A DNA stretch of 64,000 nt from Notolepis coatsorum (taxonomy: Eukaryota; Chordata; Actinopteri; Aulopiformes; Paralepididae). The DNA is taken from contig OZ020587.1 of the NCBI GenBank assembly GCA_963971535.1, positions 159,725,856 to 159,789,855 on the forward strand. Direction: 5' to 3'. Below the pieces are notes generated by a model. It had not been told where the DNA came from, did no database searches, and was given only the letters and a program-made list of their open reading frames with translations. The position numbers and the translations under genes are program-made. How positions within the stretch are numbered: the stretch's first letter is position 1; the number at the start of each line of letters is the position of its first letter. Of this stretch, positions 6,793-64,000 are shown in pieces.

Positions 6793-6834
6793 GCGTAACC
6801 AGTGTAATATCTAAATATAATATTGATATTAACC

Positions 6835-9800
6835 ATGGCCAGCGGTGAACACTCCACAAACGGCTCTCCTAAGCTAGAACGCCCGCAGCGCAGACGGCAG
6901 CCACCTCCTTACCTAGAGGACTACGCTGCCAGTCTACTACCTAGCTTTATACAGACGTTAAATGCGGAAAAAGCGGATAGTAAAAGCATGTCAAACCCTA
7001 CCGACCAGGCGACCTTGCCAGTAGAGACCCTAGTGGGTTCTAACGTAACTGACCAAGCTCACAGGGGGGACCAGGAGGGACATGACATGACTATACCCCC
7101 CGACGACGTCAACGGGACGGTCCCCGGAGAGCTCCAGGATAAAGAAAGCGCTCCAGGGACGGAACCCGACCCACTACCAGAAGAGAAGCGCACCCAGGAG
7201 ATAGACCTCCTCGGAGCGCGCCAGGAGAACGGATCTCCAACGAGCACTGTCAGAAGCCGATCACCTCCATCAGTGTCTTCCCCCAGCGAGGCGGACAAGA
7301 TGCTGGCGCAGGCATTTATCGCCACCCTGGCAGCCTCCACTGAACGCGATCGACTCCAAGCACAGACGCTTAGCGAGCGCGAACATTCTTCCATGGAACA
7401 AGAGCGCCTCCGAGCGCAACACCAAAGTGAGCGCGAACACTCTACCATGGAAAGAGAACGCCTGCAGGCTCAACAACTGAGTGAGCGCGAACAATCTGCA
7501 GACCAAAGAGAGCGCCTTCACGCGCAACTCCAAGCGCAAGCCCTTAGTGAACGCGAACACTCTGCGACCCAGCGAGAGCGCTTCCAGGCGCAGCAAAGGA
7601 GTGAAGACGACCGCATACGCCTGGAGACCAGACGCCTCCAGACGGAAGAGAATATTGAAAGAGACCGCGCCGATGCCCAGCGCGCCGCCGCCGATGCACA
7701 GCGCGAAGCCGCCAATGCACAGCGCGACGCAGCCCAAGCCCAGCGCGAAGCAGAGCGCGACCTCGCTCACATCAAGCGCGAAGCCGAGCGCGACCGACTA
7801 CAAGCGCAGATAATGGAGCAACTGATTGCCAGGGCGACTCCCCCTCTCTCCGCACGGAGCTCCAGGGCCTCGTCAAGACAAGGGTCTAGGGCACCTTCCC
7901 CTACCCGACCAAGCGACCCGGAGCCCGGCCAACAGAAAGAGCCTATACACGTCTCCGAACCCCCTCCCCGACCGGTCCATGCGAGACCCAGCAACAGGGA
8001 AGAACCGGCCTACGCCGCCGAGAGACTAAATAGACGATTGCAAGATCTAGAAGACCTAGCAGAGGAAGAGGAAGAGGAGGAAAGTCAAGCCCACCAGCAG
8101 CATCGTACTCCACAGGACCAGGAGGTCCAGTACAGCCCAGACTTTACCCCCGAGGCCCTGCGTTACAGACCCCCGACTCAACTCAAGGGTGAGTTTGACG
8201 CACCGCCAGCCCCGAGGAACAGCACCTGGGTACCCGGGCTTTGGTACCCACCAAGTACCAGCCCACAACGACACGCACGGGGAGACTCGCCCAGGAGGCC
8301 TCTCCCCCAACGCTCACCGATGTGCCAGCCATCCATGGCATCGTACCTTGGCACACCGACGTTCCCGGATTTCACACACGAGGACAGAGCACAGTACACG
8401 GAACTACGAATGTGCTTAGAGACTATGATGTCCGATGTCCCCGATGAGACGTACAAATATGCTATCCTCCTCAAGCACCTGAAGGTGCCCAGAGCGCATA
8501 ATATAGCGCTGGCATATTCCAACTCAAGTACCCCATACACCGCGGCTCTAGTAGCCCTCGACCAACGTTATGGACGCATATGGGACTACGTGATACAAGA
8601 GATAAGGAATATTGACCGTCTCCCCCCAGCCACAGACAATCGCTCATTGGATGACCTCTCCATCAAGGTACAATCCCTGGTAGGGATGCTGGGGGCACAA
8701 AAGGAAAAGGGTAGGCACGAACTGTACGCTAACTCTAATGTTGAAAGGATATTAGAGAAGCTTCCTCCCGCCCGACAAGAGCGCTTCAGGCGGCAAAGAG
8801 ACCACCGTGATCCCAACGGTCCCGAGCCATCCCTCCTAGACCTGGCCGACTTCCTCGCGAGAGAAGTCAGCAGCCTACGACTGGATACGTTCGTGCGGAG
8901 TGGACCAAGCCCCAGAGAGGGACCTCGGAGATCCAACGATAACCGCAGGCTGGTGACCGTCATGCACCAAGCCGAATCAGTACCGCGTAACAAGAACCAC
9001 AGCACCCCCTCGACGAAAGAGAAGTGGAAGATTGTATGCCAGTACTGCGAGAAAGAACATTGGCTGTCACACTGTGACACGTTCAAGAAGATGACCGCCG
9101 ACGAGGTGAGTCAATGGATAAAGTCCAACCGCCGCTGTTACCGCTGTGCGCGCAGCCATATGGCAGCCGAGTGCCGCTTGAAGAAGAGGTGTAGTCGGTG
9201 TGACGGAGCCCACTTGGACGTCTTGCATGACAGTAACAGGAAGAAACCCGCACCCTCAAGCAGCACCAGAGTAAGCGTCATGTATATTGACCCCGCCAGC
9301 AGTGGGGGCTCCCGGGTGCTCTTGAAGGTGGTCCGAGTGACATTAAGCTACGAGGACAAGGTCATGGACACTTACGCCGTCCTTGACGACGGGTCAGAAA
9401 AGACTCTCCTCCTCGCATCCGCTGCGGCCCAGCTGGGTCTGCGGGGGAGCGAAGAAACGATGACGATTCGTACTATAAGAAGAGACCTGAAGACGATAAA
9501 GGGTGAGCACGTCTCCTTCACTATCGCAGCAAGCGGGCAGCCAGAGAGGCGGTATAGGATCACTAACGCTTTCACCAGCCAAGACATAGGCCTGTCGCGG
9601 TACACCTACCCCATCGCCAAGCTGATGGATAAATACGTGCACCTGCGTCAACTACCTATACCGCTCATCGACGGCGCCACCCCGACCCTGCTCATAGGAT
9701 CCGACCACGCACACCTCATCGTCCCGACGGACCGGGTCCACATTGGGCCCAGAGGCTGTCCAGCAGCAGTTGAGACCCGCCTAGGATGGACACTACAAGG

Positions 9801-10197
9801 CCCCCTCTCCAGGTCTCCCAACCGAACAGCAGCCACTCGCTGCCTCCACTCCAGAGTGACAGAAGAAGACACCACCCTCTTACAGCACGTCGAGAGGCTA
9901 TGGACACTAGAGACAATGCCCTTTAAGAACGAAAAGAAACACATTCGTTCCAAGGAAGACATTTATGCCATAGCCCTCCTCGAGCAGGGGACAAAGAGAG
10001 TCAAAGTCAATGGAGTGATGAGATACGCAACTCCACTCCTGAGGCGAGAGGGTATGCCTACCTTCCACGCCTCAAAAGAAGCGACAGAGCGATATCTACT
10101 GAACACCGAGCGGCGCCTAGCCAGAGACCCCGCTCAAGCCACTGTGTACCGCGCTGAGATTGATAAGCTAATCACAGCGGGACACAAAGAGAATTGA
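6835..10197 (+). CDS. BEL1 Gag-protease and start of Pol
   Basis: I start at the ATG at 6835 (context ACCATGG, a strong Kozak match) rather than at the upstream TTG. From this start, about residues 148-335 form a long charged alpha-helical repeat rich in SEREHS and ERLQAQ units. A Glu-rich stretch follows near 405-415, then the conserved Gag core of BEL elements at about 510-620. Zinc-knuckle motifs at about 735-800 are CQYCEKEHWLSHC, CYRCARSHMAAEC and a CSRC-type motif. An aspartic protease core, VLDDGSEKTLLLA, lies near 845-860. The frame then enters the RT lead-in and stops at 10197, where pol continues in another frame. Gag packages the RNA and the protease would cut the polyprotein. Up to the frame change the reading frame is intact. 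Confidence 0.9.
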   Translation: MASGEHSTNGSPKLERPQRRRQPPPYLEDYAASLLPSFIQTLNAEKADSKSMSNPTDQATLPVETLVGSNVTDQAHRGDQEGHDMTIPPDDVNGTVPGELQDKESAPGTEPDPLPEEKRTQEIDLLGARQENGSPTSTVRSRSPPSVSSPSEADKMLAQAFIATLAASTERDRLQAQTLSEREHSSMEQERLRAQHQSEREHSTMERERLQAQQLSEREQSADQRERLHAQLQAQALSEREHSATQRERFQAQQRSEDDRIRLETRRLQTEENIERDRADAQRAAADAQREAANAQRDAAQAQREAERDLAHIKREAERDRLQAQIMEQLIARATPPLSARSSRASSRQGSRAPSPTRPSDPEPGQQKEPIHVSEPPPRPVHARPSNREEPAYAAERLNRRLQDLEDLAEEEEEEESQAHQQHRTPQDQEVQYSPDFTPEALRYRPPTQLKGEFDAPPAPRNSTWVPGLWYPPSTSPQRHARGDSPRRPLPQRSPMCQPSMASYLGTPTFPDFTHEDRAQYTELRMCLETMMSDVPDETYKYAILLKHLKVPRAHNIALAYSNSSTPYTAALVALDQRYGRIWDYVIQEIRNIDRLPPATDNRSLDDLSIKVQSLVGMLGAQKEKGRHELYANSNVERILEKLPPARQERFRRQRDHRDPNGPEPSLLDLADFLAREVSSLRLDTFVRSGPSPREGPRRSNDNRRLVTVMHQAESVPRNKNHSTPSTKEKWKIVCQYCEKEHWLSHCDTFKKMTADEVSQWIKSNRRCYRCARSHMAAECRLKKRCSRCDGAHLDVLHDSNRKKPAPSSSTRVSVMYIDPASSGGSRVLLKVVRVTLSYEDKVMDTYAVLDDGSEKTLLLASAAAQLGLRGSEETMTIRTIRRDLKTIKGEHVSFTIAASGQPERRYRITNAFTSQDIGLSRYTYPIAKLMDKYVHLRQLPIPLIDGATPTLLIGSDHAHLIVPTDRVHIGPRGCPAAVETRLGWTLQGPLSRSPNRTAATRCLHSRVTEEDTTLLQHVERLWTLETMPFKNEKKHIRSKEDIYAIALLEQGTKRVKVNGVMRYATPLLRREGMPTFHASKEATERYLLNTERRLARDPAQATVYRAEIDKLITAGHKEN

Positions 10198-11824
10198 CAT
10201 TCAAGAGGCCGATCAGACGACCGAATCATGGTACGTGCCCCACCACAAGGTCCACCACAACGGCAAGGATCGTATTGTGTTTAACTGCAGCTACCAGATC
10301 GGATCACAAAATCTGAATAAAGAGCTCTTGCCCGGCCCAACACTCGGCCCCTCTCTACTAGGCGTGTTGCTACGTTTCCGCCAGAACAAGGTGGCCATCA
10401 GCGGCGACATCAAAGGGATGTTCCTGCAGGTGCGACTAGTGGAAGAGGACAAGCCCCTGCTGCGGTTCTTATGGAGAGAGAAGATCGGGGATGAGCAACC
10501 ATCCATCTATCAATGGGAAGTCCTCCCTTTCGGAACCACATGCAGCCCATGCTGTGCTACGTTCGCACTGCAAAAACATGTCGCAGAGGACCCAGCAGCT
10601 GACGAGGAGGTCCGACAAAGTGTAGAAAAGAGTTTCTACGTGGACAACTGTCTGCAAAGCGTCTCGACGCCAGAAGAGGCCGAGGCCCTCCTACTCAAGC
10701 TCCGCGCCTCCCTGATCAAAGGCGGCTTTGATCTCCGGCAGTGGGCCAGCAGCGACCCTCAAGTACTGCGCAGCCTCTCCCCAGAGGACAAGGCAGCAAG
10801 CAGCGAGACCTGGATGGCGACCATCCCAGGTGAAGCCCAAGAAATGACATTAGGACTAGTCTGGCGCTTCAAAACGGACTCGCTCCATTATAGACACACA
10901 CCCCTGACCAAGGAGCAGGGAAGGTCGATTTCACTACCGACCACAAGACGGAGTGTATACAGAACACTCGCCAGACAATATGACCCGTTGGGATGTATTC
11001 TACCTTACACCACCAGGGCAAAGATGATTGTACGAGAGCTGTGGGACAAGGACCAGGGCTGGGACGACCCCATACCCGACCACCTTGCTTCCACATGGAG
11101 AGAGTGGGAAACAGAACTCAGCTCGCTCCCAGGTGTCAACATACGCCGCAGCTACTTCCCACCCACAGTGCGGCTGGAGACGTGTCAGATGGACCTGCAC
11201 GTTTTCAGCGTCGCCTCCGAAGTAGCCTACGGTTCGGTGGCCTACTTGCGGGCCCGAGAGGAGGGAGGAGAAATACATACCGCCTTCATCCTGGCTCGTT
11301 CAAGAATAGCCCCCCGCAAGCAACAATCGATCCCGCGTCTAGAGCTCTGCGCAGCCCTAGTAGGAGTGCAACTCGCCACGTTAATCCAACGTGAACTCAC
11401 CATCCCGGTGCAAAGAACAATCCTGTGGTCAGACTCCATGACCGTACTCACATGGATCCAGTCCGATTCATGTAGATACAAGGTCTTCGTGGGAGTCAGA
11501 ATCACAGAGATCCAAGATCTAACAGAATCAGCATGCTGGAGGTACGTGGACACAAAACAGAACCCAGTAGACGTCATCACACGGGGAATGTCCCTGGATG
11601 ACCTCACACGTCACAATCTCTATAGTGACGGTCCCGAGTTCCTCAAGCTCCCGGAAGAAGAGTGGCCTACACCCACCCCACGGGAGGCTAGTCAAGAGGA
11701 GGCAGAGATGAAGAAATCTATGTTCTGTGGGTTGACGCACACACCAGTCCCCACAGACCCCAACATAGACGACTGCCCCACCCTTGAGTGCGCAGTTAAA
11801 GACATTCCTGTGGCACCACCCTGA
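10198..11824 (+). pseudogene. BEL1 Pol: reverse transcriptase and RNase H (frame shifted)
   Basis: This open frame (first ATG 10235) is shifted by one base relative to the Gag frame. It holds the RT core: the first catalytic Asp in ISGDIKGMFLQV near 10395, LPFGTTCSP near 10525, and the palm motif FYVDNC at 10634-10651, where the usual second Asp of YVDD is Asn. RNase H follows, with PRLELCAA near 11335, WSDSMTVL near 11425 and NPVDVITRG near 11565. The frame ends at 11824, overlapping the next piece. It would copy the RNA into DNA and remove the template, but it is split from Gag and from integrase, so this copy probably cannot make a full Pol protein. Confidence 0.85.
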
Positions 11825-13212
11825 GGTTCCCTCCACTACTGACATTAATGCAGCTAACTACGAAGAAGCAGAACTCCTTCTGCTACAGCGAGCCCAAAGA
11901 GACTCGTTCCCCGACGAGCTAGACTGTCTGCAGGGATCAAAGCCAGTCCCGTCAGACAGCAGACTGCTCCACTTGGCCCCTGAGCGCGACGCCCATAATC
12001 TCATCAGAGTGGGTGGTCGTCTGAGAAGGGCCCCAGACTTAACGGATGACGTCAAGTTCCCGATAGTTCTCAACAGCCGACACAAGGTCACAGAGCTCAT
12101 CATAAAGAAATACGACGAGGACGTGCACCACGCCGGGGCAGAGAGTCTTCGCTGAGATCAGACGTCGCTATTGGATACTGCAAGGAAGAGAAGCAGTACG
12201 ACGCTTCCAGCGGACCTGTCTAGACTGTCGCAAGTGGCGAGCACAGCCCAGTATACCCCGGATGGCTGACCTACCCCCCTGTCGCCTTCGACTCGGCGAC
12301 AAGCCCTTTCACTCCACCGGTATGGACTGCTTCGGCCCGCTGTATGTGAAGAAAGGAAGAGGGACGGAGAAGCGGTGGGGTATTGTATTCAAATGCATGA
12401 CCACCCGAGCGATACACATAGAACTCCTTCCAACCATGAGTACGGACTCATTCCTTATGGCCTTCCGGAGATTCACAGCGCGGAAAGGAAAACCGTCTAT
12501 ATTATTGTCTGATCACGGGACAAACTTCAAAGGCGGAGAAAGAGAGCTGAGAGAGAGCTTCCAAGCTATGGGCCCAGAACTTAAGACCCACCTCGCCCCC
12601 TCTCAGATTGATTTCCAGTTTAACCCCCCGAATGCCCCTCACTTCGGGGGAACTTGGGAACGAGAAGTACGTTCAATAAAGACAGCCCTGTACGCCATGC
12701 TTGGGGCCCAGACCGTGGCGGAAGAAGTCCTCACGGAGATCGAGGGAGTATTGAACTCAAAGCCCCTCGGTTACGTCTCAAGTGATGTAGCAGATGTCGA
12801 CCCAGTCACCCCCAACACTCTCTTGATGGTGCGGCTGGACCCCGCGCTCCCACAGACAGTGTACAGACCTGAGGAAGCGAACGGCCGAAGAATGTGGAGG
12901 TACAGTCAAGTATTGGCTGACAAGTTTTGGAACAGTTTCCTCCTCCACTATCTACCGTCTCTACAGACCCGCCAGAAATGGGTAAAAGAAAGAGACAATT
13001 TGACGGAGGGCACAGTCGTCATGATTATCGACCAGTCACTACCCCGAGCTATGTGGCCGGCCGGCCGCGTAAGCAAAGTGATCACTGGTGCCGACGGAAA
13101 GGTCAGAGCGGCAGAAGTGCTCGTCCAGGGACGGACATACACCCGACCCGTGGCGAGGCTGATAGAGTTGCCAAGGCTCCCGACTCTCTTAATGATGACC
13201 ATGACCCCCTGA
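11784..13212 (+). pseudogene. BEL1 integrase, broken into two frames
   Basis: The first part (11784-12155) carries the region before the integrase, including RVGGRLRRAPDL and the start of the His/Cys zinc-binding domain (DEDVHHAG). A frame change near 12150 separates it from the second part (12262-13212). The second part has the DDE-type core: GMDCFGPLY near 12320, LLSDHGTNF near 12505 and GGTWEREVRS near 12645. The C-terminal part includes MWPAGRVSKV near 13050. The enzyme would insert the cDNA into the genome. The position after RNase H is the BEL/Pao order. Confidence 0.85.
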
Positions 13213-13302
13213 CTTTGTGAATTGCCCTACTCCTCACAAAGGACATTGAGTAGTGGACAAGGCGGCTAATCTGTCTCTGCTTATCTAATTAGGTGCGGAC
13301 TA

Positions 13303-13315
13303 ATTAGGAGGCGGC
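13303..13315 (+). other. BEL1 purine-rich tract before the 3' LTR
   Basis: TTAGGAGGCGGC abuts the TG of the 3' LTR at 13316 and is the expected position of the plus-strand primer. The run is short and imperfect. BEL2 has a similar sequence at 52030-52042 (minus strand). Confidence 0.5.
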
Positions 13316-14646
13316 TGTTACAAAGGGTCAGATTAAACCGAATATATATATTTATTACTTGAGATATATTGTATAATATTTGTATATCGTCTGATATCCC
13401 TTGTATATTCTTTGTACATATACACGGAATATCCCTTTACCTAGGTACAGGCCAGACCATAATATTCGTTCTCCTATTGGACAGCGACCCCCTAGGCGCC
13501 AACGGCCATACCCCCAATGTCTAGTTCAAAGTCACCGCTAAGACATGTCTCAACATGCCCAGGTTTGCGCAGTAATACGAGACAGAAATGAGGTTGGCAC
13601 TAGATTATTCATCTTACGTATAAATACGTTGCAGGTGGATACAGCAGTTAGTTACCCCAACAAGTTGAAGCCTTCACCACGATACAACGTGCTGTGAAGT
13701 GGGCCCGTTTTTGCCCCTAAATAGAGCCTTGAGACCGCGTGCGAATTGATAGCTAAAGTGTCAGAGTTTAACGCTGTATCGTCGAGTTCGACTTATTCTA
13801 TTATAAAGTAATAGTCTATTATGTATAGTGTATCGTGCGGCTACCGTTCTACAGTGACCAGCATTACCACCGTTTCATCGTACCGAGCTAGTGCGCTTAT
13901 CCAGGCTGGGCGGCCTAACCTTGTGCCGCCATCCGAGGAGCCCTAGACGAGAACCGTGTGGATATGTACACTGGATAACCTACACCGACGAATGCAGAGC
14001 CCTTTTCGGCTGGATTATATTGCTTTGGTACTGTGGCTGCTGGAGCAGAGAACCGTCTACCCCCACTACCGTGTGGGATCTACCCTGTGAGGAGCCCCGT
14101 CGAGCCCGCCTCTAGGACCCAGAGGCTGGCTAGCTTTCATCCATGCTGCAGTGCATACCGGAGTATAGCTGTTGCTTTGTCTAAGGACCAAGGGATTATT
14201 GCACCGTCTCCTGTACCTGGAGTCTCTTTATTCCTCGTTGATCCAGACTTTTGCTCCCGACAATTCCTCTCCCCTGCTGGCTTACAACCGGAGGGAACCC
14301 CCTTAGTATCTCCAGCTGACCTACGACTGTGCCTTATATAATTCTTATGCTACAGGTGGTATTAATTATTCCCATCGTAATATGCTCATGGACTTACGCT
14401 CTTGACCTATTCATGCACATTCTTCGCCATACAAGCGCGACCCTAATTCTCAATACTGTACTCTAATATTGCTGCTCTTCTAATAAATATTCCAAACAGG
14501 ACTTTCTTTGTTAAGCCGTGTTATTGTGTGGGTGTTCATCATATATACCGTGTACTGTATGGCCAGTAATTAAAGTACATAACTCAGTAGTGGTTTAATG
14601 ATACCATACTCTCAATACAGTCAGGGAATTGTACCCCTCAGTTACA
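13316..14646 (+). repeat. BEL1 3' LTR (1331 bp, intact)
   Basis: It starts TGTTACAAAGGGTC and ends CCTCAGTTACA. It serves as the uninterrupted reference for the split 5' LTR and shows the empty site of the solo LTR. TATAAATA at 13619-13626 is a likely TATA box. AATAAA at 14482-14487 could serve as a polyadenylation signal, but this is unproven. Confidence 0.93.
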
Positions 14647-14651
14647 AGTTG

Positions 14652-21797: not shown

Positions 21798-21931
21798 CTT
21801 CCGTGACGACAGGCCATGTACACAGAGCCGTCCTCACTGCCCACCACAAAGTTGTTGACGTCTCCCAGCGGGAAGGACATGGAGGTGACGGCCACCGCTT
21901 TGGACTGTTTGAACACCAGCTCCAGGCTGTC
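21798..21931 (-). CDS. dync1i2: Exon C of a dynein intermediate chain 2-like gene (WD40)
   Basis: On the minus strand the exon reads [18 protein letters not shown], then [20 protein letters not shown] and MACRHG, ending within a Ser codon. The acceptor AG is at 21932-21933 and the donor GTAACG begins at 21797. The length of 134 nt gives phase 0 at the start and phase 2 at the end. This is part of the WD40 propeller of the cytoplasmic dynein 1 intermediate chain, which binds the heavy chain and, through its N-terminus, dynactin. [14 protein letters not shown] fits paralogue 2 better than paralogue 1. Fish have two dync1i2 copies and I cannot tell which this is. The next exon downstream is not in the window. 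Confidence 0.92.
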
Positions 21932-21934
21932 CTG

Positions 21935-23135
21935 TAGGAGAGGAGAGGAGGGGGGGAGGAGGAGGAGGAGGAGAGGGAGGAGGAGGAGGAGGGGGAGGAG
22001 AAGAGGGGGAGGGGGAGGGGGGGAGGAAGGAGGAGGAGGAGGAGGAGAGGGAGGAGGAGAGGGAGGGGGAGGAGAAGAGGTGAAGAGGGAGAAGGATGAG
22101 AAGAGAAAGAGAAGAGGAGAAGAGGGAGGAGGAGGTGGAGGAGAAGAGGGAGGAGAAGGATGAGAAGAGGAGGAGGCGGAGGAGAGGGAAGAGGAGGAGG
22201 AGAGGGAAGAGGAGGAGAAGAGGGAGGAGGAGGTGGAGGAGAAGAGGGAGGAGAAGGAGGAGAAGAGGAGGAGAAGAGAAGAGGGAGGAGAATAGGGAAG
22301 AGGAGGTGGATGAGAAGAGGGAGGAGAAGGAGGAGAAGAGGAGGCAGAGGAGAGAGAAGAGGAGAAGAGGGAGGAGGAGAGGGAAGAGGAGGCGGAGGAG
22401 AAGAGGGAGGAGAAGGAGGAGGGGAGGAGAAGGAGGAGGAGGCGGAGAGAGAAGAGGAGAAGAGGGAGGAGGAGAGGATAGAGGAGGCGGGGGAGAAGGA
22501 GGAGAGGGAAGAGGAGGAGAAGAGGGAGGAGAAGAGAGAGGAGAAGGAGAAGAGGGAGGAGGAGAAGAAGGAGAAGAGGGAGGAGGAGAAGGAGAAGAGG
22601 GAGGAGGAGAAGAGGACAAGAGGGGGAGAAGGGGAGGAGGAGGAGAAGAGGGGGAGGAGGAGAGGAGGGGGAGGAGGAGAAGAGGAAGGGGGGGAGGAGG
22701 AGGAGAAGAGGGGGGAGGGGGAGGAGGAGAAGAGGGGGAGGAGGAGGAGAAGAGGGAGGAGAAGAAGAGGGAGGAGAAGAGGGGGAGGAGGCAGAGGAGG
22801 GAGGAGGAGGAGACGAGGGAGGAGGAGGTGGAGAAGAGGGAGGAAAAGGAGGAGAAGAGGAGAAGAAGAGAAGAGGGAGAATAGGGAAGAGGAGGCGGGA
22901 GAGAGAAGAGGAGAAGAGGGAGGAGGAGGAGAGGGAAGAGGAGAAGAGGGAGGAGAAGAGGGAGGAGGAGGAGAAGGAGGAGGAGGAGAAGAGGGAGGAG
23001 GAGAGGGAAGAGGAGGAGAAGGGGGAGGAGGAGAGGGAGAGGGAAGAGGAGGAGAAGGAGGAGAAGAAGGAGGAGAGGGAAGAGGAGGAGAAGAGGAGAA
23101 GAGGGAGGAGGAGAAGAGGGGGAAGAGGAGGGAGT
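21935..23135. repeat. 1.2 kb polypurine tract (GGA/GAA-rich)
   Basis: The plus strand is almost pure G and A; on the gene strand it is a polypyrimidine tract that ends at the acceptor AG of exon C. Long frames here (Glu/Arg/Gly or Ser/Pro/Leu) are repeat artefacts, although one of them runs on into the true exon C. Confidence 0.95.
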
Positions 23136-23610: not shown

Positions 23611-23780
23611 ACTTCTCTATACCTCTCTAGTCTCTGACCACAGCTGTTATCTCTGTACCTCTCTAGTCTCTGACCACAGCTGTTATCTCTGTACCTCTCT
23701 AGTCTCTAGTCTCTGACCACAGCTGTTATCTCTGTACCTCTCTAGTCTCTAACCACAGCTGTTATCTCTGTCTCTAGGAG
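23611..23780 (+). repeat. Short tandem repeat, about 36-bp unit, four copies
   Basis: The unit is close to CTCTGTACCTCTCTAGTCTC followed by TGACCACAGCTGTTAT. One copy carries a duplicated TCTAGTC. It leads straight into the next minisatellite. Confidence 0.85.
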
Positions 23781-24941
23781 GGATATGAGGACTGTGTGTA
23801 TGTGTAACTAGGAGGGATATGAGGACTGTGTGTGTGTGTAACTAGGAGGGATATGAGGACTGTTTGTGTGTGTAACTAGGAGGGATATGAGGACTGTGTG
23901 TAAGTGTAACTAGGAGGGATATGAGGACTGTGTGTGTGTGTAATTAGGAGGGATATGTGGACTGTGTGTATGTGTAACTAGGAGGGATATGAGGACTGTG
24001 TGTATGTGTAACTAGGAGGGATATGAGGACTGTATGTATGTGTAACTAGGAGGGATATGAGGACTGTGTGTATATGTAACTAGGAGGGATATGAGGACTG
24101 TGTGTATGTGTAACTAGGAGGGATATGAGGACTGTGTGTAAGTGAAACTAGGAGGGATATGAGGACTGTATGTGTGTGTATGTGTGTGTGTGTGTGTGTA
24201 TGTGTGTGTGTGTGTAACTAGGAGTAGGAGGGATATGAGGACTGTGTGTAAGTGTAATTAGGAGGGATATGAGGACTGTGTGTATGTGTAACTAGGAGGG
24301 ATATGAGGACTGTGTGTATGTGTAACTAGGAGGGATATGAGGACTGTGTGTATGTGTAACTAAGAGGGATATGAGGACTGTGTGTGTGTGTAACTAGGAG
24401 GGATATGAGGACTGTGTGTGTAACTAGGAGGGATATGAGGACTGTGTGTATGTGTAACTAGGAGGGATATGAGGACTGTGTGTGTGTGTAACTAGGAGGG
24501 ATATGAGGACTGTTTGTGTGTGTAACTAGGAGGGATATGAGGACTGTTTGTGTGTGTAACTAGGAGGGATATGAGGACTGTGTGTATGTGTAACTAGGAG
24601 GGATATGAGGACTGTGTGTGTGTGTAACTAGGAGGGATATGAGGACTGTTTGTGTGTGTAACTAGGAGGGATATGAGGACTGTGTGTAAGTGTAACTAGG
24701 AGGGATATGAGGACTGTGTGTGTGTGTAATTAGGAGGGATATGTGGACTGTGTGTATGTGTAACTAGGAGGGATATGAGGACTGTGTGCGTGTGTAACTA
24801 GGAGGGATATGAGGACTGTGTGTGTGTGTAACTAGGAGGGATATGAGGATTGTGTGTATGTGTAACTAGGAGGGATATGAGGACTGTGTGTATGTGTAAC
24901 TAGGAGGGATATGAGGACTGTATGTGTGTGTATGTGTGTGT

Positions 24942-24973
<32 letters not shown>

Positions 24974-26304
24974 AACTAGGAGTAGGAGGGATATGAGGAC
25001 TGTGTGTAAGTGTAACTAGGAGGGATATGAGGACTGTGTGTGTGTGTAACTAGGAGTAGGAGGGATATGAGGACTGTGTGTACAGTATGTGTAACTAGGA
25101 GGGATATGAGGACTGTGTGTAACTAGGAGGGATATGAGGACTGTGTGTGTGTGTAACTTATGAGGACTGTGTGTGTAACTAGGAGGGATATGAGGACTGT
25201 GTGTAACTAGGAGGGATATGAGGACTGTGTGTAACTAGGAGGGATATGAGGACTGTGTGTAAGTGTAACTAGGAGGGATATGAGGACTGTGTGTGTATGT
25301 GTAACTAGGAGAGATATGAGGACTGTGTGTAACTAGGAGGGATATGAGGACTGTGTGTGTGTAACTAGGAGGGATATGAGGACTGTGTGTGTATGTGTAA
25401 CTAGGAGGGATATGAGGACTGTGTGTAACTAGGAGGGATATGAGGACTGTGTGTAACTAGGAGGGATATGAGGACTGTGTGTAAGTGTAACTAGGAGGGA
25501 TATGAGGACTGTGTGTAAGTGTAACTAGGAGGGATATGAGGACTGTGTGTAACTAGGAGGGATATGAGGACTGTGTGTAAGTGTAACTAGGAGGGATATG
25601 AGGACTGTGTGTAAGTGTAACTAGGAGGGATATGAGGACTGTGTGTAACTAGGAGGGACATGAGGACTGTGTGTATGTGTAACTAGGAGGGATATGAGGA
25701 CTGTGTGTAACTAGGAGGGATATGAGGACTGTGTGTATGTGTAACTAGGAGGGATATGAGGACTGTGTGTAACTAGGAGGGATATGAGGACTGTGTGTAA
25801 CTAGGAGGGATATGAGGACTGTGTGTAAGTGTAACTAGGAGGGATATGAGGACTGTGTGTAAGTGTAACTAGGAGGGATATGAGGACTGTTTGTAACTAG
25901 GAGGGATATGAGGACTGTGTGTATGTGTAACTAGGAGGGATATGAAGACTGTGTGTAACTAGGAGGGATATGAGGACTGTGTGTAACTAGGAGGGATATG
26001 AGGACTGTGTGTAACTAGGAGGGATATGCGGACTGTGTGTAAGTGTAACTAGGAGGGATATAAGGGCTGTGTGTAAGTGTAACTAGGAGGGATATGAGGA
26101 CTGTGTGTAACTAGGAGGGATATGAGGACTGTGTGTATGTGTAACTAGGAGGGATATGAAGACTGTGTGTATGTGTAACTAGGAGGGATATGAAGACTGT
26201 GTGTAACTAGGAGGGATATGAGGACTGTGTGTAACTAGGAGGGATATGAGGACTGTGTGTAACTAGGAGGGATATGAGGACTGTGTGTGTGTGTAACTAG
26301 GAGG
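23781..26304 (+). repeat. 2.5 kb minisatellite reaching the splice donor of exon B
   Basis: The unit is GTAACTAGGAGGGATATGAG plus GACTGTGTGT and a variable TG-rich spacer, giving 28-34 bp. TG microsatellites have grown inside it near 24176-24216 and 24927-24973. Its right end stops three bases from the last base of exon B, and the junction itself resembles the repeat unit (see findings). Confidence 0.95.
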
Positions 26305-26307
26305 TAC

Positions 26308-26421
26308 CTGAGGCTGGGACAGCATGTCTAGGCTCCAGGAGCACATCTTGCCGTCGGTAGAGATGCTGATCAGGTTGTGAGCGTTCTGGGTGCCGACCAC
26401 GTTGACACAGTAGACGGGGTG
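26308..26421 (-). CDS. dync1i2: Exon B of a dynein intermediate chain 2-like gene (WD40)
   Basis: The minus strand reads [20 protein letters not shown], then [18 protein letters not shown]: 38 codons, phase 0 at both ends. The acceptor is CCGCAG at 26422-26427 and the donor is GTACCT from 26307. It directly follows exon A in the protein (A ends SAHT, B begins HPVY) and precedes exon C (PQ then DSLELV), as in the intermediate-chain family. STDGK and CSWSLD are typical WD40 strand sequence. The residues are well conserved and there is no sign of decay. Confidence 0.95.
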
Positions 26422-29539: not shown

Positions 29540-29962
29540 TCGCTGTTATATCATAAAGTAGGAGTGAGTTATTATAATCAGGTCTCTCTGGTACTGTATC
29601 ATAAAGTAGGAGTGTATTATTATAACCAGGTCTCCTGTACCATATCATAAACTAGGTGTATTATAACCAGGTCTCTCTTGTACCATATCATAAACTAGGT
29701 GTATTATAACCAGGTCTCTTGTACCATATCATAAACTAGGTGTATTATAACCAGGTCTCTCTTGTACCATATCATAAACTAGGTGTATTATAACCAGGTC
29801 TCTTGTATCATATCATAAACTAGGTGTATTTTATAACCAGGTCTCTCTTGTACCATATCATAAACTAGGAGTATTATAACCAGGTCTCCTGTACCATATC
29901 ATAAACTAGGTGTATAATAACCAGGTCTCTTGTACCATATCATAAACTAGGTGTATTATAAC
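29540..29962 (+). repeat. 43-bp minisatellite, segment 1 (distal end)
   Basis: The unit is close to TAAACTAGGTGTATTATAAC plus CAGGTCTCTCTTGTACCATA and TCA. The first units differ most (ATAAAGTAGGAGTG), as expected at the edge of an array. The segment ends at the hAT insertion, whose target duplication ATTATAAC lies within the unit. Confidence 0.95.
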
Positions 29963-30560
29963 TAGGGATGCACGATAATTATCGGGATATCAGCAATTAT
30001 GACGTCATCCCGATAAACCCGATAACGTTATTGATAGCTCCGATAATATATAATAAATTATTTGGTTAAAAGAAATCCGGTGTGGGTGGATTTGGATGAA
30101 GGGCGCTTGTTTTTATTATAGCCTCCTCCCGTTTTGCCAGTACTGTGGTACGATTGTTAGCGTGTGGTTTAGTAACAGGGAGTTTTTCACAAATCCAGCG
30201 CTCCCTTTCTTGGCTGTGACGTACAGTAGTCACGTTACATTCGGAGGCAGACAGTCGATCTGCCAATTACGTCCCACCGCTTGCACCCACCTCTTCTTCT
30301 TACCACCAATCAGAAGCTCTCGTTCATTTATTTACCTCCGGATTGTCAGCCATTATTCTACTCGGAGCTCAGGCTAATAACGTTAGATCCCCGCCAGCCA
30401 CATTGACAAGTACCAGCGCTTATACATTACTGGCAAATGTCTTGTTGCACTTGTGGCAACGAGCGTTGTCAGCATCGACTTTAGTAAAATAGACCCAGAC
30501 TTTTGAACGTTTCGTTCTGTCCGCCATGATGAGAGCAGAGCTGTCTGTACTCGGCAGCAC

Positions 30561-40286: not shown

Positions 40287-40291
40287 TACCA

Positions 40292-43092
40292 TATCATAAA
40301 CTAGGTGTATTATAACCAGGTCTCTCTTGTACCATATCATAAACTAGGTGTATTATAACCAGGTCTCTCTTGTACCATATCATAAACTAGGTGTATTATA
40401 ACCAGGTCTCTCCTGTACCATATCATAAACTAGGTGTATTATAACCAGGTCTCTCTTGTACCATATCATAAACTAGGTGTATTATAACCAGGTCTCTCTT
40501 GTACCATATGGTAAACTAGGTATATTATAACCAGGTCTCTCTTGTACCATATCATAAACTAGGTGTATTATAACCAGGTCTCTCCTGTACCATATCATAA
40601 ACTAGGTGTATTATAACCAGGTCTCTCTTGTACCATATCATAAACTAGGTGTATTATAACCAGGTCTCTCTTGTACCATATCATAAACTAGGTGTATTAT
40701 AACCAGGTCTCTCTTGTACCATATCATAAACTAGGTGTATTATAACCAGGTCTCTCTTGTATCATATCATAAACTAGGTGTATTATAACCAGGTCTCTTG
40801 TACCATATCATAAACTAGGAGTATTATAACCAGGTCTCTTGTACCATATCATAAACTAGGTGTATAATAACCAGGTCTCTCCTGTACCAGATCATAAACT
40901 AGGTGTATTATAACAGGTCTCTCTTGTACTATATCATAAACTAGGTGTATTATAACCAGGTCTCTCTTGTACCATATCATAAACTAGGTGTATTATAACC
41001 AGGTCTCTCTTGTACCATATCATAAACTAGGTGCATTATAGCCAGGTCTCTCTTGTACCATATCATAAACTAGGTGTATTATAACCAGGTCTCTCTTGTA
41101 CCATATCATAAACTAGGTGTATAATAACTAGGTATCTTGTACCATATCATAAACTAGGTGTATAATAACTAGGTATCCTGTACCATATCATAAACTAGGT
41201 GTATAATAACCAGGTATCTTGTACCGTATCATAAACTAGGTGTATTATAACCAGGTCTCTCTTGTATCATATCATAAACTAGGTGTATTATAACCAGGTC
41301 TCTTGTACCATATCATAAACGAGGTGTATTATAACCAGGTCTCTTGTACCATATCATAAACTAGGAGTATTATAACCAGGTCTCTCTTGTACCATATCAT
41401 AAACTAGGTGTATTATAACCAGGTCTCTCTGGTACCATATCATAAACTAGGTGTATTATAACCAGGTCTCTTGTACCATATCATAAACTAGGTGTATTAT
41501 AACCAGGTATCTTGTACCATATCATAAACTAGGTGTATTATAACCAGGTCTCTCTTGTACCATATCATAAACTAGGTGTATTATAACCAGGTCTCTCTTG
41601 TACCATATCATAAACTAGGTGTATTATAACCAGGTCTCTCTTGTACCATATCATAAACTAGGTGTATTATAACCAGGTCTCTCCTGTACCATATCATAAA
41701 CTAGGTGTATTATAACCAGGTCTCTCTTGTACCATATCATAAACTAGGTGTATTATAACCAGGTCTCTCTTGTACCATATCATAAACTAGGTGCATTATA
41801 ACCAGGTCTCTCTTGTACCATATCATAAACTAGGTGTATTATAACCAGGTCTCTCTTGTATCATATCATAAACTAGGTGTATTATAACCAGGTCTCTTGT
41901 ACCATATCATAAACTAGGAGTATTATAACCAGGTCTCTTGTACCATATCATAAACTAGGTGTATAATAACCAGGTCTCTCCTGTACCAGATCATAAACTA
42001 GGTGTATTATAACCAGGTCTCTCTTGTACTATATCATAAACTAGGTGTATTATAACCAGGTCTCTTTTGTACCATATCATAAACTAGGTGTATTATAACC
42101 AGGTCTCTCTTGTACCATATCATAAACTAGGTGCATTATAGCCAGGTCTCTCTTGTACCATATCATAAACTAGGTGTATTATAACCAGGTCTCTCTTGTA
42201 CCATATCATAAACTAGGTGTATAATAACTAGGTATCTTGTACCATATCATAAACTAGGTGTATAATAACTAGGTATCCTGTACCATATCATAAACTAGGT
42301 GTATAATAACCAGGTATCTTGTACCGTATCATAAACTAGGTGTATTATAACCAGGTCTCTCTTGTATCATATCATAAACTAGGTGTATTATAACCAGGTC
42401 TCTTGTACCATATCATAAACGAGGTGTATTATAACCAGGTCTCTTGTACCATATCATAAACTAGATGTATTATAACCAGGTCTCTCTTGTACCATATCAT
42501 AAACTAGGTGTATTATAACCAGGTCTCTCTTGTACCATATCATAAACTAGGTGTATAATAACTAGGTATCTTGTACCATATCATAAACTAGGTGTATTAT
42601 AACCAGGTCTCCTGTACCATATCATAAACTAGGTGTATTATAACCAGGTCTCTCCTGTACCATATCATAAACTAGGTGTATTATAACCAGGTCTCCTGTA
42701 CCATATCATAAACTAGGTGTATTATAACCAGGTCTCTTGTACCATATCATAAACTAGGAGTATTATAACCAGGTCTCTCTTGTACCAGATCATAAACTAG
42801 GTGTATTATAACCAGGTCTCTCTTGTACCATAGCATAAACTAGGTGTATTATAACCAGGTCTCTCTGGTACCATATCATAAACTAGGTGTATTATAACCA
42901 GGTCTCTTGTACCATATCATAAACTAGGTGTATTATAACCAGGTCTCTCTGGTACCATATCATAAACTAGGTGTATTATAACCAGGTCTCTTGTACCATA
43001 TCATAAACTAGGTGTATTATAACCAGGTATCCTGTACCATATCATAAACTAGGTGTATTATAACCAGGTATCTTGTACCATATCATAAACGT
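40292..43092 (+). repeat. 43-bp minisatellite, segment 3 (largest)
   Basis: About 65 units in the same orientation. Variant units recur in the same order: TACCAGATCATAAAC, GTGCATTATAGCC and AACTAGGTATCCTG appear near 40885-41180 and again near 41985-42280, a higher-order period of about 1.1 kb. The segment ends in CATAAAC at the inverted-repeat element. Confidence 0.95.
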
Positions 43093-44036: not shown

Positions 44037-44627
44037 ACACAAAAAAAGGTTAACCAACGGAAGCAGGCAGCGCACCGGGGAAAAACCAGGCAACAGGCTG
44101 TTAACCCTAGCCTGGAGACTGCGGACGAGACAGGCGCCAGAGGGGACAGCTGAACACAGCCGCCCCGGCGGAAGGAGCGTAAGCTGGCGGTGTTGCATGA
44201 CCAAGCCTCCATTTAACAACCCCCACCCAGAGGGGTCGAGGCAGAGAAGGCTGACACGATTGGCAGACGTCATGAACGTGCAGGGGCACCCTCAACCGGT
44301 GAACCCGGGAGTTGACACTGCTCCAACACACCAGGGAACCAACCACCTCGGTGTTACCCAATGCGGTGGTTGTTCCTATAACCCCTCAAGAAAAAACTCC
44401 AAAACACACCTGCGGGTATACACCGGCTATACCGCAGTACAAGTGTTTCAGTTTCCAAAAAGGGTTAACCCAGGCCTACGGGTCGCAAACATCACTTCGG
44501 ACCGGGCCTGGCGGTACGGGAAGCACAGGGTCACCAGAGGAGGTCAAAAAACCACCCCCACAGGCCCCTCTTCGCCATGCGTGAGAGAGGAGCGAAAAAC
44601 AATGGAGAACCAGCCCCTAAGCACACC

Positions 44628-45967: not shown

Positions 45968-48257
45968 GTAACGTGCCGAACCGCCACGTGACGGGAACCT
46001 TGAAGGACAGGGGGTGTACCCCTGACCGACAGAACAAAGGGGAGAGGAAAGGTTACCAGTTCACCCCTTTACGACCCCACACCCATGATACGACGTAACG
46101 ACAAAAAGAGAATATGACACAGTCATAGTCAGCTCTATGAAGCGTTTCACAGCTCCACACAGCGCACGAGCTAACCTGCTATCTGATTTTTACTAAGGAA
46201 AAACACAGAATAGAGAGGGCTCTAAGAACCCCGGTCCAACATACACATGTGCTTCTGTGGCCAGTACAACCCAGTTGTAGGTCACATGACACACACAACC
46301 CATCATCATCACAATGAGAGAATACATCATTCTTGATTAGTATCGACCACAGGCCTTGCTAAGCACACGACAGCAACCAAACCAATTTCCCTTTAGGAAA
46401 TAAGTTTCTCCAGCAGATTTAGCACAACCTCAGCAATCAAGCTGAGAGTTACATCGTATCCCTACCACACAAAAGACACAATTAATGCACAACATGTCTG
46501 ATAGGAGGTGATAAAGTCCCCAGGGAACCGGGGGGGGAAAAACACAATCCTCCTATTTTACCCTCAACACGGCCAGTTAAAACAGGAAAACCTGTTAATG
46601 TGTGAACTCACTGTCCATTGTCATTACAGTCTGAGAAAGAACATTCTTTTACTCACTCGTCACCAAGCATAGCTTCATAGGTTAGTTGCCTTAGTAGTGA
46701 GTACACGGTACACATAAACACCATGATGTTTCTCACACAACAACCAGATCAATACATCACGACCTGCACGGAGAAGCTACTGCCAGTGACAAAAACAGCT
46801 CACACACAACCCGCAACGTATCTCAAATGCATTGCAACAACACACGTTTTGGGAAAAAACACCGTCATTCACAATACATTTAGCAAGGTAAAACCAGAAG
46901 ACGTGTTATGAGGGTCTGGCCAACCCCGTACCTGCCCGGAACGCAGATCAGCGAAGTGCAGTCATAAGCCACCGTAGAACACAGCCCTCTTTGTTGACGC
47001 AATCCCCGTCTAGGCTCAGGCAGGGTTGACGAACATCCCCTGTCAAAGATGACGTCGTGGTCAAGAGTGTAAAACATGTTAAAAATCAAAGCACGTTCAA
47101 CAGAATAGCATCAAGCTAACGGCTGCTCCAACCGTTCTGGTGCTATCGCTTCCGCTCGCGAGACGCCGATCTACGACGCACGCGATCAGGAGCGAGCTCC
47201 CGGCGGCGCGCGAGAAGCCTAAGCTACCCCGCGCCAGGCCACCGACCGGCTAACCGTAAGCTATGAACATGTAAACAATGACATAACACTCACCCAGACA
47301 GGCCGCCGTTCTGAACCCTCCTCACTTTTTAAGAGAAAAGAGAAAACAAGACGTCAACACCGCTTCACAACGGTGACATTAACACGTCCGGCGGAATCAG
47401 CACAGTACCAACTGGCCTGTATAGCTGACTTTGAACATGAATCTGCCGCTATCGCACATTACATGCACATATCCCCTCGTGAAGGAATACTCTCATTTGG
47501 ATATGAAAGATGGGGTCTTAACACGGTGACAGAGAGAATCCACTCGTCCAGAACACACAGGGATCACCAGTGTCAATGGTCGCGGCCCACTAGTTAAAAC
47601 TATAATGGTCGCCAGACCAAGGCCTTCTGTCGCCTAGACGGCTAAACAAAGGACCCTAGCCTGGGGCCGGTTTCCATAAACTTTGTCTAGTAGCCCCCAT
47701 AGCACTAACAGACAAGTGGAGCCCGCCAGCAAACACTACTCACCCAACCTGGAACGCACCGCTCCTCACAACAGCGGCATGTCCGACAGTTCAGCTGTGG
47801 CCTGACAGGTTTCACCCCAACAAACACAGCAAGGAACTGCAGTTGAGAAGCATGCAGCGGCGTGCTCCCAATACGAAAACCGGTGGAGGGTTTGTAGAAT
47901 GATCATCATCTTCTAGACACTCCAGTACGAAGACAATATCGCCGTATTTTCTCGAAAATAGTGAGAGAGAAAATAAAGATATGATGTCAACGTATCCTTG
48001 TTTCCCAAGCTGTTCCTAATCCAATTTCTTCCATCATGGTGTCAAGTGTGGGGATCTACCGAGGCACCTCTTCCTTGTGGTGAAAGCGAGAAGGAGGAGA
48101 GCAGGTGACCACACACCTGCTTATGAAGGTAAGCTGATGAGGGGTGTGGTCAGACTAATACTGGTATTAGAGGTACATTTGTGGTTTATTCAGTACGCGT
48201 GCACGTACGCGAGATAGTGCAGAAGGCGAAGCCAAGCTAAGCCACTAACGATACAGA

Positions 48258-49593
48258 ACTAGGTGTATTATAACCAGGTCTCCTGTACCATATCATAAAC
48301 TAGGTGTATTATAACCAGGTCTCTTGTACCATATCATAAACTAGGTGTATTATAACCAGGTCTCTTGTACCATATCATAAACTAGGTGTATAATAACTAG
48401 GTATCTTGTACCATATCATAAACTAGGTGTATTATAACCAGGTCTCTTGTACCATATCATAAACTAGGTGTATTATAACCAGGTCTCTTGTACCATATCA
48501 TAAGCTAGGTGTATAATAACTAGGTATCTTGTACCATATCATAAACTAGGTGTATTATAACCAGGTCTCTCTTGTACCATATCATAAACTAGGTGTATTA
48601 TAACCAGGTCTCTCTTCTACCATATCATAAACTAGGTGTATTATAACCAGGTCTCTCTTGTACCATATCATAAACTAGGTGTATTATAACCAGGTCTCTC
48701 TTGTACCGTATCATAAACTAGGTGTATTATAACCAGGTCTCTCTTGTACCATATCATAAACTAGGTGTATTATAACCAGGTCTTTCTTGTACCGTATCAT
48801 AAACTAGGTTTATTATAACCAGGTCTCTTGTACCATATCATAAACTAGGTTTATTATAACCAGGTCTCTTGTACCATATCATAAACTAGGTGTATTATAA
48901 CGAGGTCTCTTGTACCATATCATAAACTAGGTGTATTATAACCAGGTCTCTTGTACCATATCATAAACTAGGTTTATTATAACCAGGTCTCTTGTACCAT
49001 ATCATAAACTAGGTGTATTATAACAGGTATCTTGTACCATATCATAAACTAGGTGTATAATAACCAGGTCTCTTGTACCATATCATAAACTAGGTTTATT
49101 ATAACCAGGTCTCTTGTACCATATCATAAACTAGGTTTATTATAACCAGGTCTCTCCTGTACCATATCATAAACTAGGTGTATTATAACCAGATCTCTCT
49201 TGTACCATATCATAAACTATGTGTATTATAACCAGGTCTCTCTTGTACCGTATCATAAACTAGGTGTATTATAACCAGGTCTCTCTTGTACCATATCATA
49301 AACTAGGTGTATTATAACCAGGTCTCTCTTGTACCATATCATAAACTAGGTGTATTATAACCAGGTCTCTTGTACCATATCATAAACTAGGTGTATTATA
49401 ACCAGGTCTCTCCTGTACCATATCATAAACTAGGTGTATTATAACCAGATATCTTGTACCATATCATAAACTAGGTGTATTATAACCAGGTCTCTCTTGT
49501 ACCATATCATAAACTAGGTGTATTATAACCAGGTCTCTCTTGTACCATATCATAAACTAGGTGTATTATAACCAGGTCTCTCTTGTACCATAT
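48258..49593 (+). repeat. 43-bp minisatellite, segment 4
   Basis: About 31 units in the same orientation, between the inverted-repeat element and BEL2. It contains TTTATTATAACC variants not seen in the other segments. The right edge ends in CATAT, the BEL2 target. Confidence 0.95.
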
Positions 49594-57119: not shown

Positions 57120-58241
<1,122 letters not shown>

Positions 58242-58245
58242 CTAG

Positions 58246-58379
58246 GGGGGGGGGGGGGGGGGAGAGAGAGAGGGAAATAGAGAGGGAGAGACAGGAGGAC
58301 AGAGAGGGAGACAGGAGAGAGAGAGAGACATTTACATTTAGTCATTTAGCTGACGCTTTTATCCAAAGCGACTTACGAG

Positions 58380-58418
<39 letters not shown>

Positions 58419-58680
58419 CAGAGAGAGAGGAGAGGGAGAGACAGAGAGAGAGGAGGGGGAGAGAGAGACAGAGAGATAGAGAGAGAGGAGAGGGAGAGAG
58501 AGACAGAGAGAGAAGAGGGGGAGAGAGAGACAGAGAGAGATGGGAGAGAGAGAGGGGAGAGAGACAGAGAGAGATGGAGGGGGAGAGAGGGGAGAGAGTG
58601 AGAGAGAGAGAGGGAGAGAGTGAGAGAGAGAGATGGAGAGAGAGAGACAGAGACAGAGAGAGATGGAGATGGTGGGATAA
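58246..58680. repeat. G run and GA-rich microsatellite with an embedded L2 tail
   Basis: A run of about 17 G is followed by GAGA-rich sequence up to 58675. A 47-bp L2 3'-end piece (ATTTACATTTAGTCATTTAG, then CCAAAGCGACTTAC) is embedded at 58330-58376. Confidence 0.93.
58330..58376 (-). mobile_element. L2 3'-end fragment
   Basis: It matches the first 45 bases of the L2 copy at 49877. It is a minimal 5'-truncated insertion in the GA tract. Confidence 0.75.
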
Positions 58681-63354: not shown

Positions 63355-64000
63355 GAGTGAGAAAGGAGAAGAAACAGAGAGATAAAGAGAGAGCAGAGAA
63401 AGAGAGACAGACAGAGACAAACAGAGAGACAGAGAGAGAGAGAGACAGAGATAGACAGACAGAGCGAGACAGACAGACAGACAGAGACAGACAGAGAGAC
63501 AAAAAGAGAGAGACAGACAGGCAGACAGACAGACGAGACAGACAGAGAGAGACAGACAGACAGCCAGAGACAGACAGAGAGACAAACAGAGAGAGACAGA
63601 CAGGCAGACAGACAGACAGACGAGACAGACAGAGAGAGACAGACAGACAGCCAGAGACAGACAGAGAGAGACAGCCAGAGACAGACAGAGAGAGACAGCC
63701 AGAGACAGACAGAGAGACAGACAGAGACAGATAGACAGACAGACAGGTACCTGACAGACAGACAGACAGGTACCTGGCAGACAGACAGACAGGTACCTGA
63801 CAGACATACATACAGAGACAGATAGACAGGCAGACAGACAGACAGGTACCTGGCAGACAGACAGAGAGAAACAGATAGACAGGCAGACAGACAGGTACCT
63901 GGCAGACAGACAGACATACAGAGACAGATAGACAGGCAGACAGACAGACAGGTACCTGGCAGACAGACAGACAGACAGGTACCTGGCAGATATACAGACA
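63355..64000. repeat. GACA/GAGA tandem repeat with embedded CAGGTACCTG motifs
   Basis: GACA- and GAGA-type repeats run to the end of the window. From 63744 the palindrome CAGGTACCTG appears seven times at uneven spacing. Cys/Leu/Ser-rich frames on the minus strand are repeat artefacts. Confidence 0.93.

What the first reader, a model, noticed from the sequence alone, without database searches (positions are those of the whole stretch)
26281..26330. Minisatellite beside exon B looks like copies of the exon-intron junction itself
On the gene strand the exon B donor region reads CAGCCTCAG|GTACCTCCTAGTTAC; the repeat unit reads CAGTCCTCAT ATCCCTCCTAGTTAC. By eye, 21 of 25 aligned positions agree, and the match extends nine bases into the coding exon. 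Since the exon is constrained by coding, the exon is the likely source: a duplication across the splice donor seeded a 2.5 kb array that grew into the intron.
Basis: partly seen in the sequence, partly recalled or inferred. Interest (0 to 1): 0.75.

Follow-up and report, generated by a model that had tools for sequence, protein, structure and literature searches.

The report
Tandem repeats born at splice sites
The repeat array beside this exon belongs to a repeat family scattered over the genome and was probably not copied from the exon, but elsewhere in the same gene and in other genes of this animal, exon edges with their splice sites really have been copied over and over into the introns, which is an unusual way for introns to grow.

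Summary
The match is real as counted (21 of 25 columns), but 12 of the 21 are the array's own last copy. The exon part alone is weak (p 0.01-0.03 anchored, 0.07-0.11 unanchored). A 24-base piece of the unit occurs 21,580 times genome-wide in many separate arrays; six array edges seen elsewhere show no splice donor. So exon B is probably not the source of this array, which merely ends at intron position +4.

The proposed mechanism, however, is plain at other junctions. The dync1i2 exon at C8:159,724,768-159,724,912 ends GGAGCACCAAG|GTACC; that string recurs 14 times in the next kilobase. The exon-B donors of both dync1i paralogues are themselves copied. In all, 10 of 45 donors and 3 of 48 acceptors carry junction-spanning tandem copies, among them 5 of 57 junctions in genes not chosen for repeats. 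Array starts are 4.5- to 24-fold denser within 30 nt of junctions. Donors with arrays are weaker (median 1.2 vs 4.4 bits, p=7e-5). Exon A's 43-mer array, reaching its donor, is private: 77 of 77 genome copies lie in that intron. Which donors are spliced was not tested.

The parts
26308..26421 (-). Exon B of a dync1i2-like gene ([38 protein letters not shown]); donor CAG|GTACCT at 26308/26307
   Evidence: phmmer to dynein 1 intermediate chain 2, E 4.5e-20; tblastn; boundary
23774..26304 (-). 34/28-mer minisatellite array, 76 copies, ending at intron position +4 of exon B; member of a dispersed family (21,580 exact 24-mers genome-wide)
   Evidence: TRF, unit list, genome count
23614..23771 (.). 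36-mer array, 4.2 copies, directly beside the far end of the 34-mer array
   Evidence: TRF
58095..58241 (-). Exon A ([19 protein letters not shown]...SASAHT); donor ACG|GTACAT at 58095/58094
   Evidence: tblastn, sequence, boundary
57120..58094 (-). 43-mer array reaching the exon A donor; first intron copy GTACATAACC... is a divergent full unit (unit GTACAAGAGAGACCTGG...GATATG), similarity from +1 by eye and from +13 by the 16-mer criterion
   Evidence: sequence, TRF 57120-58081, sweep
48257..49593 (-). Second piece of the private 43-mer array, same intron
40287..43090 (-). Third piece of the private 43-mer array
29570..29966 (-). Fourth piece of the private 43-mer array; 77 of 77 genome matches of its 25-mer lie within 29641-58031
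21798..21931 (-). Exon C; donor AAG|GTAACG followed at once by a run of about 20 C
   Evidence: boundary
21936..23131 (-). 1.2 kb (CCT)n tract reaching the exon C acceptor
   Evidence: TRF
58262..58663 (-). (TC)n tracts upstream of the exon A acceptor
   Evidence: TRF
63374..64000 (-). Part of the array downstream of the next upstream exon (exon 3, beyond the window, 64452-64577 in window numbering); repeats its donor CTGCCAG|GTACCTGTCTG; 7 of the 17 downstream donor copies lie inside the window, at 63750-63982

Best explanation
Two things are present. (1) The exon B array is one locus of a dispersed 28/34-bp minisatellite family that abuts the exon B donor at +4 and now supplies donor positions +4 to +6; its likeness to the exon end is most likely chance or a short microhomology where the array met the intron. 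(2) In the same genome, short tandem duplications that span an exon-intron junction have repeatedly seeded arrays that grew into the intron. The exon-nearest copy keeps the reading frame intact, so the duplication is tolerated, and slippage or unequal exchange then multiplies the unit, carrying exon bases and a splice-site copy into the intron each time. Shown here: the junction-spanning copies, their position, their number and the weakness of the donors. Inferred: that the exon-nearest donor is the one used, that growth was by slippage or unequal exchange, and that weak donors either tolerate or result from the redundancy.
For: Dispersed family: 10,139 + 11,441 exact matches of the 24-mer, 0 + 0 for the reversed control; the places listed (a capped list) form about 11 groups in the first 16.5 Mb of C1. 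Junction-born arrays: 10 of 45 donors and 3 of 48 acceptors have tandem copies reaching at least 5 nt into both exon and intron, with 187 downstream donor copies in the ten donor arrays within the sequence held and at most 3 kb. Genes not chosen for repeats (eef2-like, vcp-like, slc25a12-like): 3 of 27 donors, 2 of 30 acceptors. Array starts per kb within 30 nt of the junction against 30-285 nt: donors 13.97 vs 2.44 (dync1i trio, p 0.001) and 4.19 vs 0.54 (other genes, p 0.004); acceptors 9.12 vs 2.04 (p 0.006) and 3.72 vs 0.15 (p 0.0003). Donor strength 1.2 vs 4.4 bits, Mann-Whitney p 6.7e-5; p 0.004 and 0.010 in the two subsets. Exon A array private: 77 of 77.
Against: Only four gene families were sampled and the dync1i trio was looked at because of the finding; the slc25a12-like gene is its neighbour. 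Array coverage stays level from about +30 to +300 beside donors, so part of the picture could come from ubiquitous arrays plus tolerance. Several acceptor-side starts are pyrimidine or GT tracts that natural acceptors may have anyway. The genome-wide count of paired strong donors (1,213 against 643 for the reversed pattern) looks dominated by very large arrays in the capped list and proves nothing. The donor matrix was recalled from memory, and +5 G alone does not differ significantly (8 of 16 vs 22 of 29, p 0.10). Exon A's array copies no exon bases. For exon B, its edge score (4) is higher than at six edges elsewhere (0,0,0,0,2,0), so an exon origin is not excluded.
Confidence: 0.78

Rival explanations
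1. The exon B array itself was seeded by a duplication across the exon B donor, and the family later spread from there to other loci (very roughly 2,000, extrapolated from about 11 groups in 16.5 Mb).
For: 21 of 25 columns; anchored P 0.01-0.03; edge score above the six other edges; exon B donors of both paralogues are truly copied in arrays.
Against: No unit keeps GGTA; exon-nearest units are not more exon-like by eye; 21,580 copies of the 24-mer in the genome; unanchored P 0.07-0.11.
Confidence: 0.1
2. No junction-specific birth: tandem duplication is common throughout this genome, exon-internal ones are purged, and junctions are simply the places where arrays stop.
For: About a third of donor-side and an eighth of acceptor-side intron positions are in arrays out to 300 nt; exon positions 30-60 nt inside the exon have none (0 of 37 donors, 0 of 36 acceptors).
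Against: Starts are concentrated within 30 nt of junctions in all four subsets, and arrays reach up to about 28 nt into the exon, which a stop at the boundary does not give.
Confidence: 0.3
3. Compact ancestral introns: introns were about 100 nt long when arrays were seeded, so seeds fell near a junction by necessity.
For: Fits arrays at both donors and acceptors; teleost introns are often short (recalled, no call).
Against: Would predict starts spread over 0-100 nt; donor starts in the other genes are -17,-13,-9,2,9,15 and then 167,197,237.
Confidence: 0.3
4. Selection for donor redundancy: repeated weak donors jointly recruit U1 and are kept for that.
For: Weak donors carry arrays; copies keep GT and near-identical donors.
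Against: If used, the first downstream donor copy would shift the frame or bring a stop at 8 of 10 donors. Arrays without exon copies occur at donors as well.
Confidence: 0.12
5. Assembly artefact.
For: Arrays are hard to assemble.
Against: Several genes and three paralogous loci show it; copies within arrays differ from one another.
Confidence: 0.03

Closest known systems
Human IFI6 (6-16) minisatellite with multiple splice donor sites (Turri, Cuin and Porter 1995; title seen in the reference lists of PMC4526556, PMC2572611 and PMC3618361; the paper itself, PMC306954, is not held)
   Same: By its title, a minisatellite that provides several splice donors in one transcript (that it lies at an exon-intron junction is recalled)
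   Different: One gene there; here many junctions, donors and acceptors, with up to 92 donor copies counted in 3 kb. Use of the copies not tested here. The exon B array has no donor GT at the matching place of its units
Tandem genomic duplication as a route of intron gain (review PMC3443670, passages seen)
   Same: A duplication that copies AGGT and with it splice-site sequence
   Different: There an exonic duplication makes a new intron; here an existing junction is duplicated and the existing intron grows
Fish intron minisatellites, e.g. growth hormone introns of Sparus (mentioned in PMC3045353, passages seen)
   Same: Variable tandem arrays inside fish introns
   Different: No exon copies or splice-site anchoring in the passages seen
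Dispersed minisatellite/satellite families (general knowledge)
   Same: The exon B unit: same unit in many arrays across the genome
   Different: How this family spreads is not known; no transposon was tied to it here

Membership tests
Junction-seeded array (exon B array) | Units copy exon bases beyond chance | tested here: inconclusive
   Anchored P 0.01-0.03, unanchored 0.07-0.11
Junction-seeded array (exon B array) | Unit private to the locus | tested here: not met
   21,580 exact 24-mers genome-wide
Junction-seeded array (exon B array) | Fewer or no copies in related species | not testable with these tools
   The genome tool holds no relatives of this genome
Dispersed minisatellite family (exon B array) | Same unit in many separate arrays | tested here: met
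   six of seven fetched pieces show array edges elsewhere
Junction-seeded array (exon A array) | Unit private to the locus | tested here: met
   77 of 77 matches in one intron
Junction-seeded array (exon A array) | Unit copies exon bases | tested here: not met
   By eye ACACG| against ATATG|; not among the spanning junctions
Junction-seeded arrays (10 donors, 3 acceptors) | Copies reach at least 5 nt into exon and intron | tested here: met
   10 of 45 donors, 3 of 48 acceptors
IFI6-type minisatellite giving multiple splice donors | Donor GT repeated in the units | tested here: met
   187 downstream donor copies at ten donors; at exon B no GGTA in the array
IFI6-type minisatellite giving multiple splice donors | Several of the donors are used in mRNA | not testable with these tools
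   No RNA data

The most novel reading that the evidence does not exclude
In this large genome splice junctions are birthplaces of minisatellites: introns lengthen outward from their own splice sites by repeated copying of the exon-intron junction, and the resulting string of redundant donors goes together with decay of the real donor, so that splice-site strength and array growth evolve together.
Probability: 0.3. Interest if true: 0.85.

Novelty: new variant of a known kind. Interest (0 to 1): 0.62.

Why it matters
How introns grow is usually told through transposon insertion. Junction-spanning arrays at 10 of the 45 donors examined (3 of 27 outside the gene family I started from) would be a second, datable route, and they put many equally good donors in a row, which makes the question of how the spliceosome picks the right one directly testable in natural genes. 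The link between arrays and weak donors is a concrete, checkable prediction.

Tried and rejected
Exon origin of the exon B array: judged unlikely after the genome count. Donor sequence GTACCT or the palindrome CAG|GTACCTG as the trigger: GTACCT begins four dync1i2 donors (the full palindrome only exon 3), but the eef2-like, slc25a12-like and several C7 arrays start otherwise, so not pursued. Genome-wide paired-donor pattern: inconclusive. Reading frame as a filter on downstream donors: no common rule. The first genome pattern was mistyped with respect to the unit and its ten matches mean nothing for this question. The human HAT1 and dync1i2 N-terminal queries found nothing in the 264-kb stretch at E 1e-3.

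Junction table: one search used 73 junctions; three of four strings that failed there were retyped and added together with 17 slc25a12-like junctions, giving 45 donors and 48 acceptors. Where a string occurred several times because the junction is repeated (three cases) the exon-nearest one was taken. Not every exon gave both junctions: those with an unclear or unfetched edge (for instance the acceptor of the first mapped dync1i2 exon and the second donor of L054) were left out before counting.

Literature: searches listed no paper whose title or abstract start describes recurrent junction-born arrays; they cover open-licence papers only. An ATP2A2 search for more exons did not complete and was dropped.

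Full report
What is in the window. The gene is a cytoplasmic dynein 1 intermediate chain 2-like gene on the minus strand (phmmer E 4.5e-20; exon map). The window holds exon A (58095-58241), exon B (26308-26421) and exon C (21798-21931) (boundaries set by hand). It lies at C8:159,725,856-159,789,855 of a 3.42-Gb genome. The genome has three dync1i-like loci (C8, C7, C1329).

The observation. The array 23774-26304 (period 34, 76 copies) ends three bases from the exon (array base 26304; GT at 26307-26306). The count 21 of 25 is right, but 12 of the 21 matches are the array's last partial copy. The rest is an exon nine-mer with one gap, plus GTA. Anchored at the array edge this is reached by 2.7% of 8,000 window 16-mers, 2.4% of 5,000 shuffles, 2.8% of 389 exon 10-mers followed by CAGGTA and 1.0% of 386 exon 13-mers followed by GTA; unanchored by 7-11%. 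The array has no GG on the gene strand, so no unit keeps GGTA; by eye units near the exon are not more exon-like than distant ones.

The decisive test for exon B. The 24-mer CCTCATATCCCTCCTAGTTACACA occurs 10,139 + 11,441 times in the genome, the reversed control 0 + 0. The places printed (a capped list) fall into about eleven groups in the first 16.5 Mb of C1. Seven short pieces at array edges were fetched; six show the edge, in different unit registers, none with a donor. The continuation score is 0, 0, 0, 0, 2 and 0 there, 4 at exon B. The array is thus a member of a dispersed family; an origin at exon B is not excluded but not favoured.

The neighbouring exon A. Its intron begins GTACATAACCATAACCTGGTTACCATACACCTAGTTTATGATATG and then repeats GTACAAGAGAGACCTGGTTATAATACACCTAGTTTATGATATG, so the array reaches the donor itself (by the stricter 16-mer criterion it starts at +13). 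A 25-mer of this unit occurs 77 times in the whole genome, all 77 within this intron (window 29641-58031). It now lies in four main pieces separated by other DNA, including a retroelement-like block with 99.8% identical ends (retroelement by eye from its reading frames). This array is private and donor-anchored but copies no exon bases.

Junctions that really are copied. One hundred kb on each side of the window was fetched. dync1i2 exon 7 (C8:159,724,768-159,724,912, outside the window) ends TGTGGAGCACCAAG|GTACCTGTCTG and GGAGCACCAAGGTACC recurs 14 times in the next kilobase. Exon 3 ends CTGCCAG|GTACCTG with 17 downstream copies, 7 of them in the window at 63750-63982. In the C7 paralogue the exon ending CCTTCCACTGCCAG|GTAGGG, the exon A donor, the exon B donor (CAGCCGCAG|GTACAG) and the exon ending ACACAGAG|GTACTAC are copied, and so is one acceptor with its exon start; in the C1329 paralogue the exon B donor is copied.

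Other genes. To get away from the ascertained gene I took vcp-like and eef2-like exons (17 stretches fetched, chosen from the 31 matches for being vcp- or eef2-like rather than retrocopies or other ATPases) and the neighbouring slc25a12-like gene. Junction-spanning copies occur at 3 of 27 donors (two eef2-like, one slc25a12-like with 92 donor copies counted in 3 kb) and 2 of 30 acceptors (an eef2-like 50-bp duplication carrying 24 nt of exon, and one in the slc25a12-like gene). In the dync1i trio the figures are 7 of 18 and 1 of 18. Together 10 of 45 donors and 3 of 48 acceptors.

Position and strength. Array starts per kb of exposed sequence, within 30 nt of the junction against 30-285 nt: donors 13.97 vs 2.44 (trio) and 4.19 vs 0.54 (others); acceptors 9.12 vs 2.04 and 3.72 vs 0.15; binomial p 0.001, 0.004, 0.006 and 0.0003. 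Several acceptor starts are pyrimidine or GT tracts and may be natural acceptor composition. Donors with an array start within 30 nt (16 of 45) score a median of 1.2 bits against 4.4 for the other 29 (p 6.7e-5; 0.004 and 0.010 in the two subsets), using a weight matrix recalled from memory; G at +5 alone is not significant (p 0.10). For exon A and exon B the array itself occupies positions that help to define the donor, so direction of cause is open.

Reading. A short duplication spanning a junction is tolerated because the copy nearest the exon is intact; the unit can then multiply into the intron. If used, the first downstream donor copy would be in frame without a stop at only 2 of 10 donors. 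Hence I expect the nearest donor to be used; there is no RNA evidence here. Whether junctions are special birthplaces, or arrays are common everywhere and seen at junctions because ancestral introns were short, is not settled by 93 junctions from four gene families.

Known relatives. A human precedent is the IFI6 minisatellite with multiple splice donors (Turri et al. 1995), seen here only as a title in reference lists. Tandem genomic duplication copying AGGT is a recognised route of intron gain (PMC3443670, passages). My searches listed no report of recurrent junction-born arrays in one genome; they saw open-licence papers only.

Noticed in passing
dync1i donors in window (58095, 26308) and in fetched flanks and paralogues: Unusual donors: 8 of the 18 dync1i donors begin GTAC; exon 3's CAG|GTACCTG is a perfect 10-bp palindrome holding a KpnI site.
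   Followed up: partly
C8:about 159,645,120-159,648,120, left of the window (slc25a12-like exon, minus strand): 92 copies of a donor (AACCTGGTCTCA|GTGAGT, 10-mer with at most one mismatch) counted in the 3 kb downstream of one slc25a12-like exon (the count stops at 3 kb).
   Followed up: partly
C8 left flank, slc25a12-like exons: Two slc25a12-like exons lie on the minus strand, the others found on the plus strand: an inversion, a misassembly or two gene copies.
   Followed up: no
L037 and L038, exon B donors: Beyond the exon copy, the intron part of the units in the C7 and C1329 paralogues is alike (ACAGATCAG-TACTAAT), although these look like dync1i2- and dync1i1-type genes; conversion or a shared dispersed piece.
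   Followed up: no
window 5746-14647: Retroelement-like block with 99.6% identical ends and large open frames between them.
   Followed up: no
window 31029 to about 40284: Retroelement-like block with 99.8% identical ends, its far end next to the 43-mer array that resumes at 40287.
   Followed up: no
window 44620-44737: 5S rRNA match (66.6 bits) inside the block that separates two pieces of the 43-mer array.
   Followed up: no
window 23774-26304: Most units hold ATATCCCT on the gene strand, one base from the U12-type donor consensus (recalled); probably chance.
   Followed up: no
C1:318,143,540-318,146,168 or beyond: Large array of units holding the strong donor motif CAGGTAAGT, period mostly 22-28 (capped list).
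   Followed up: no
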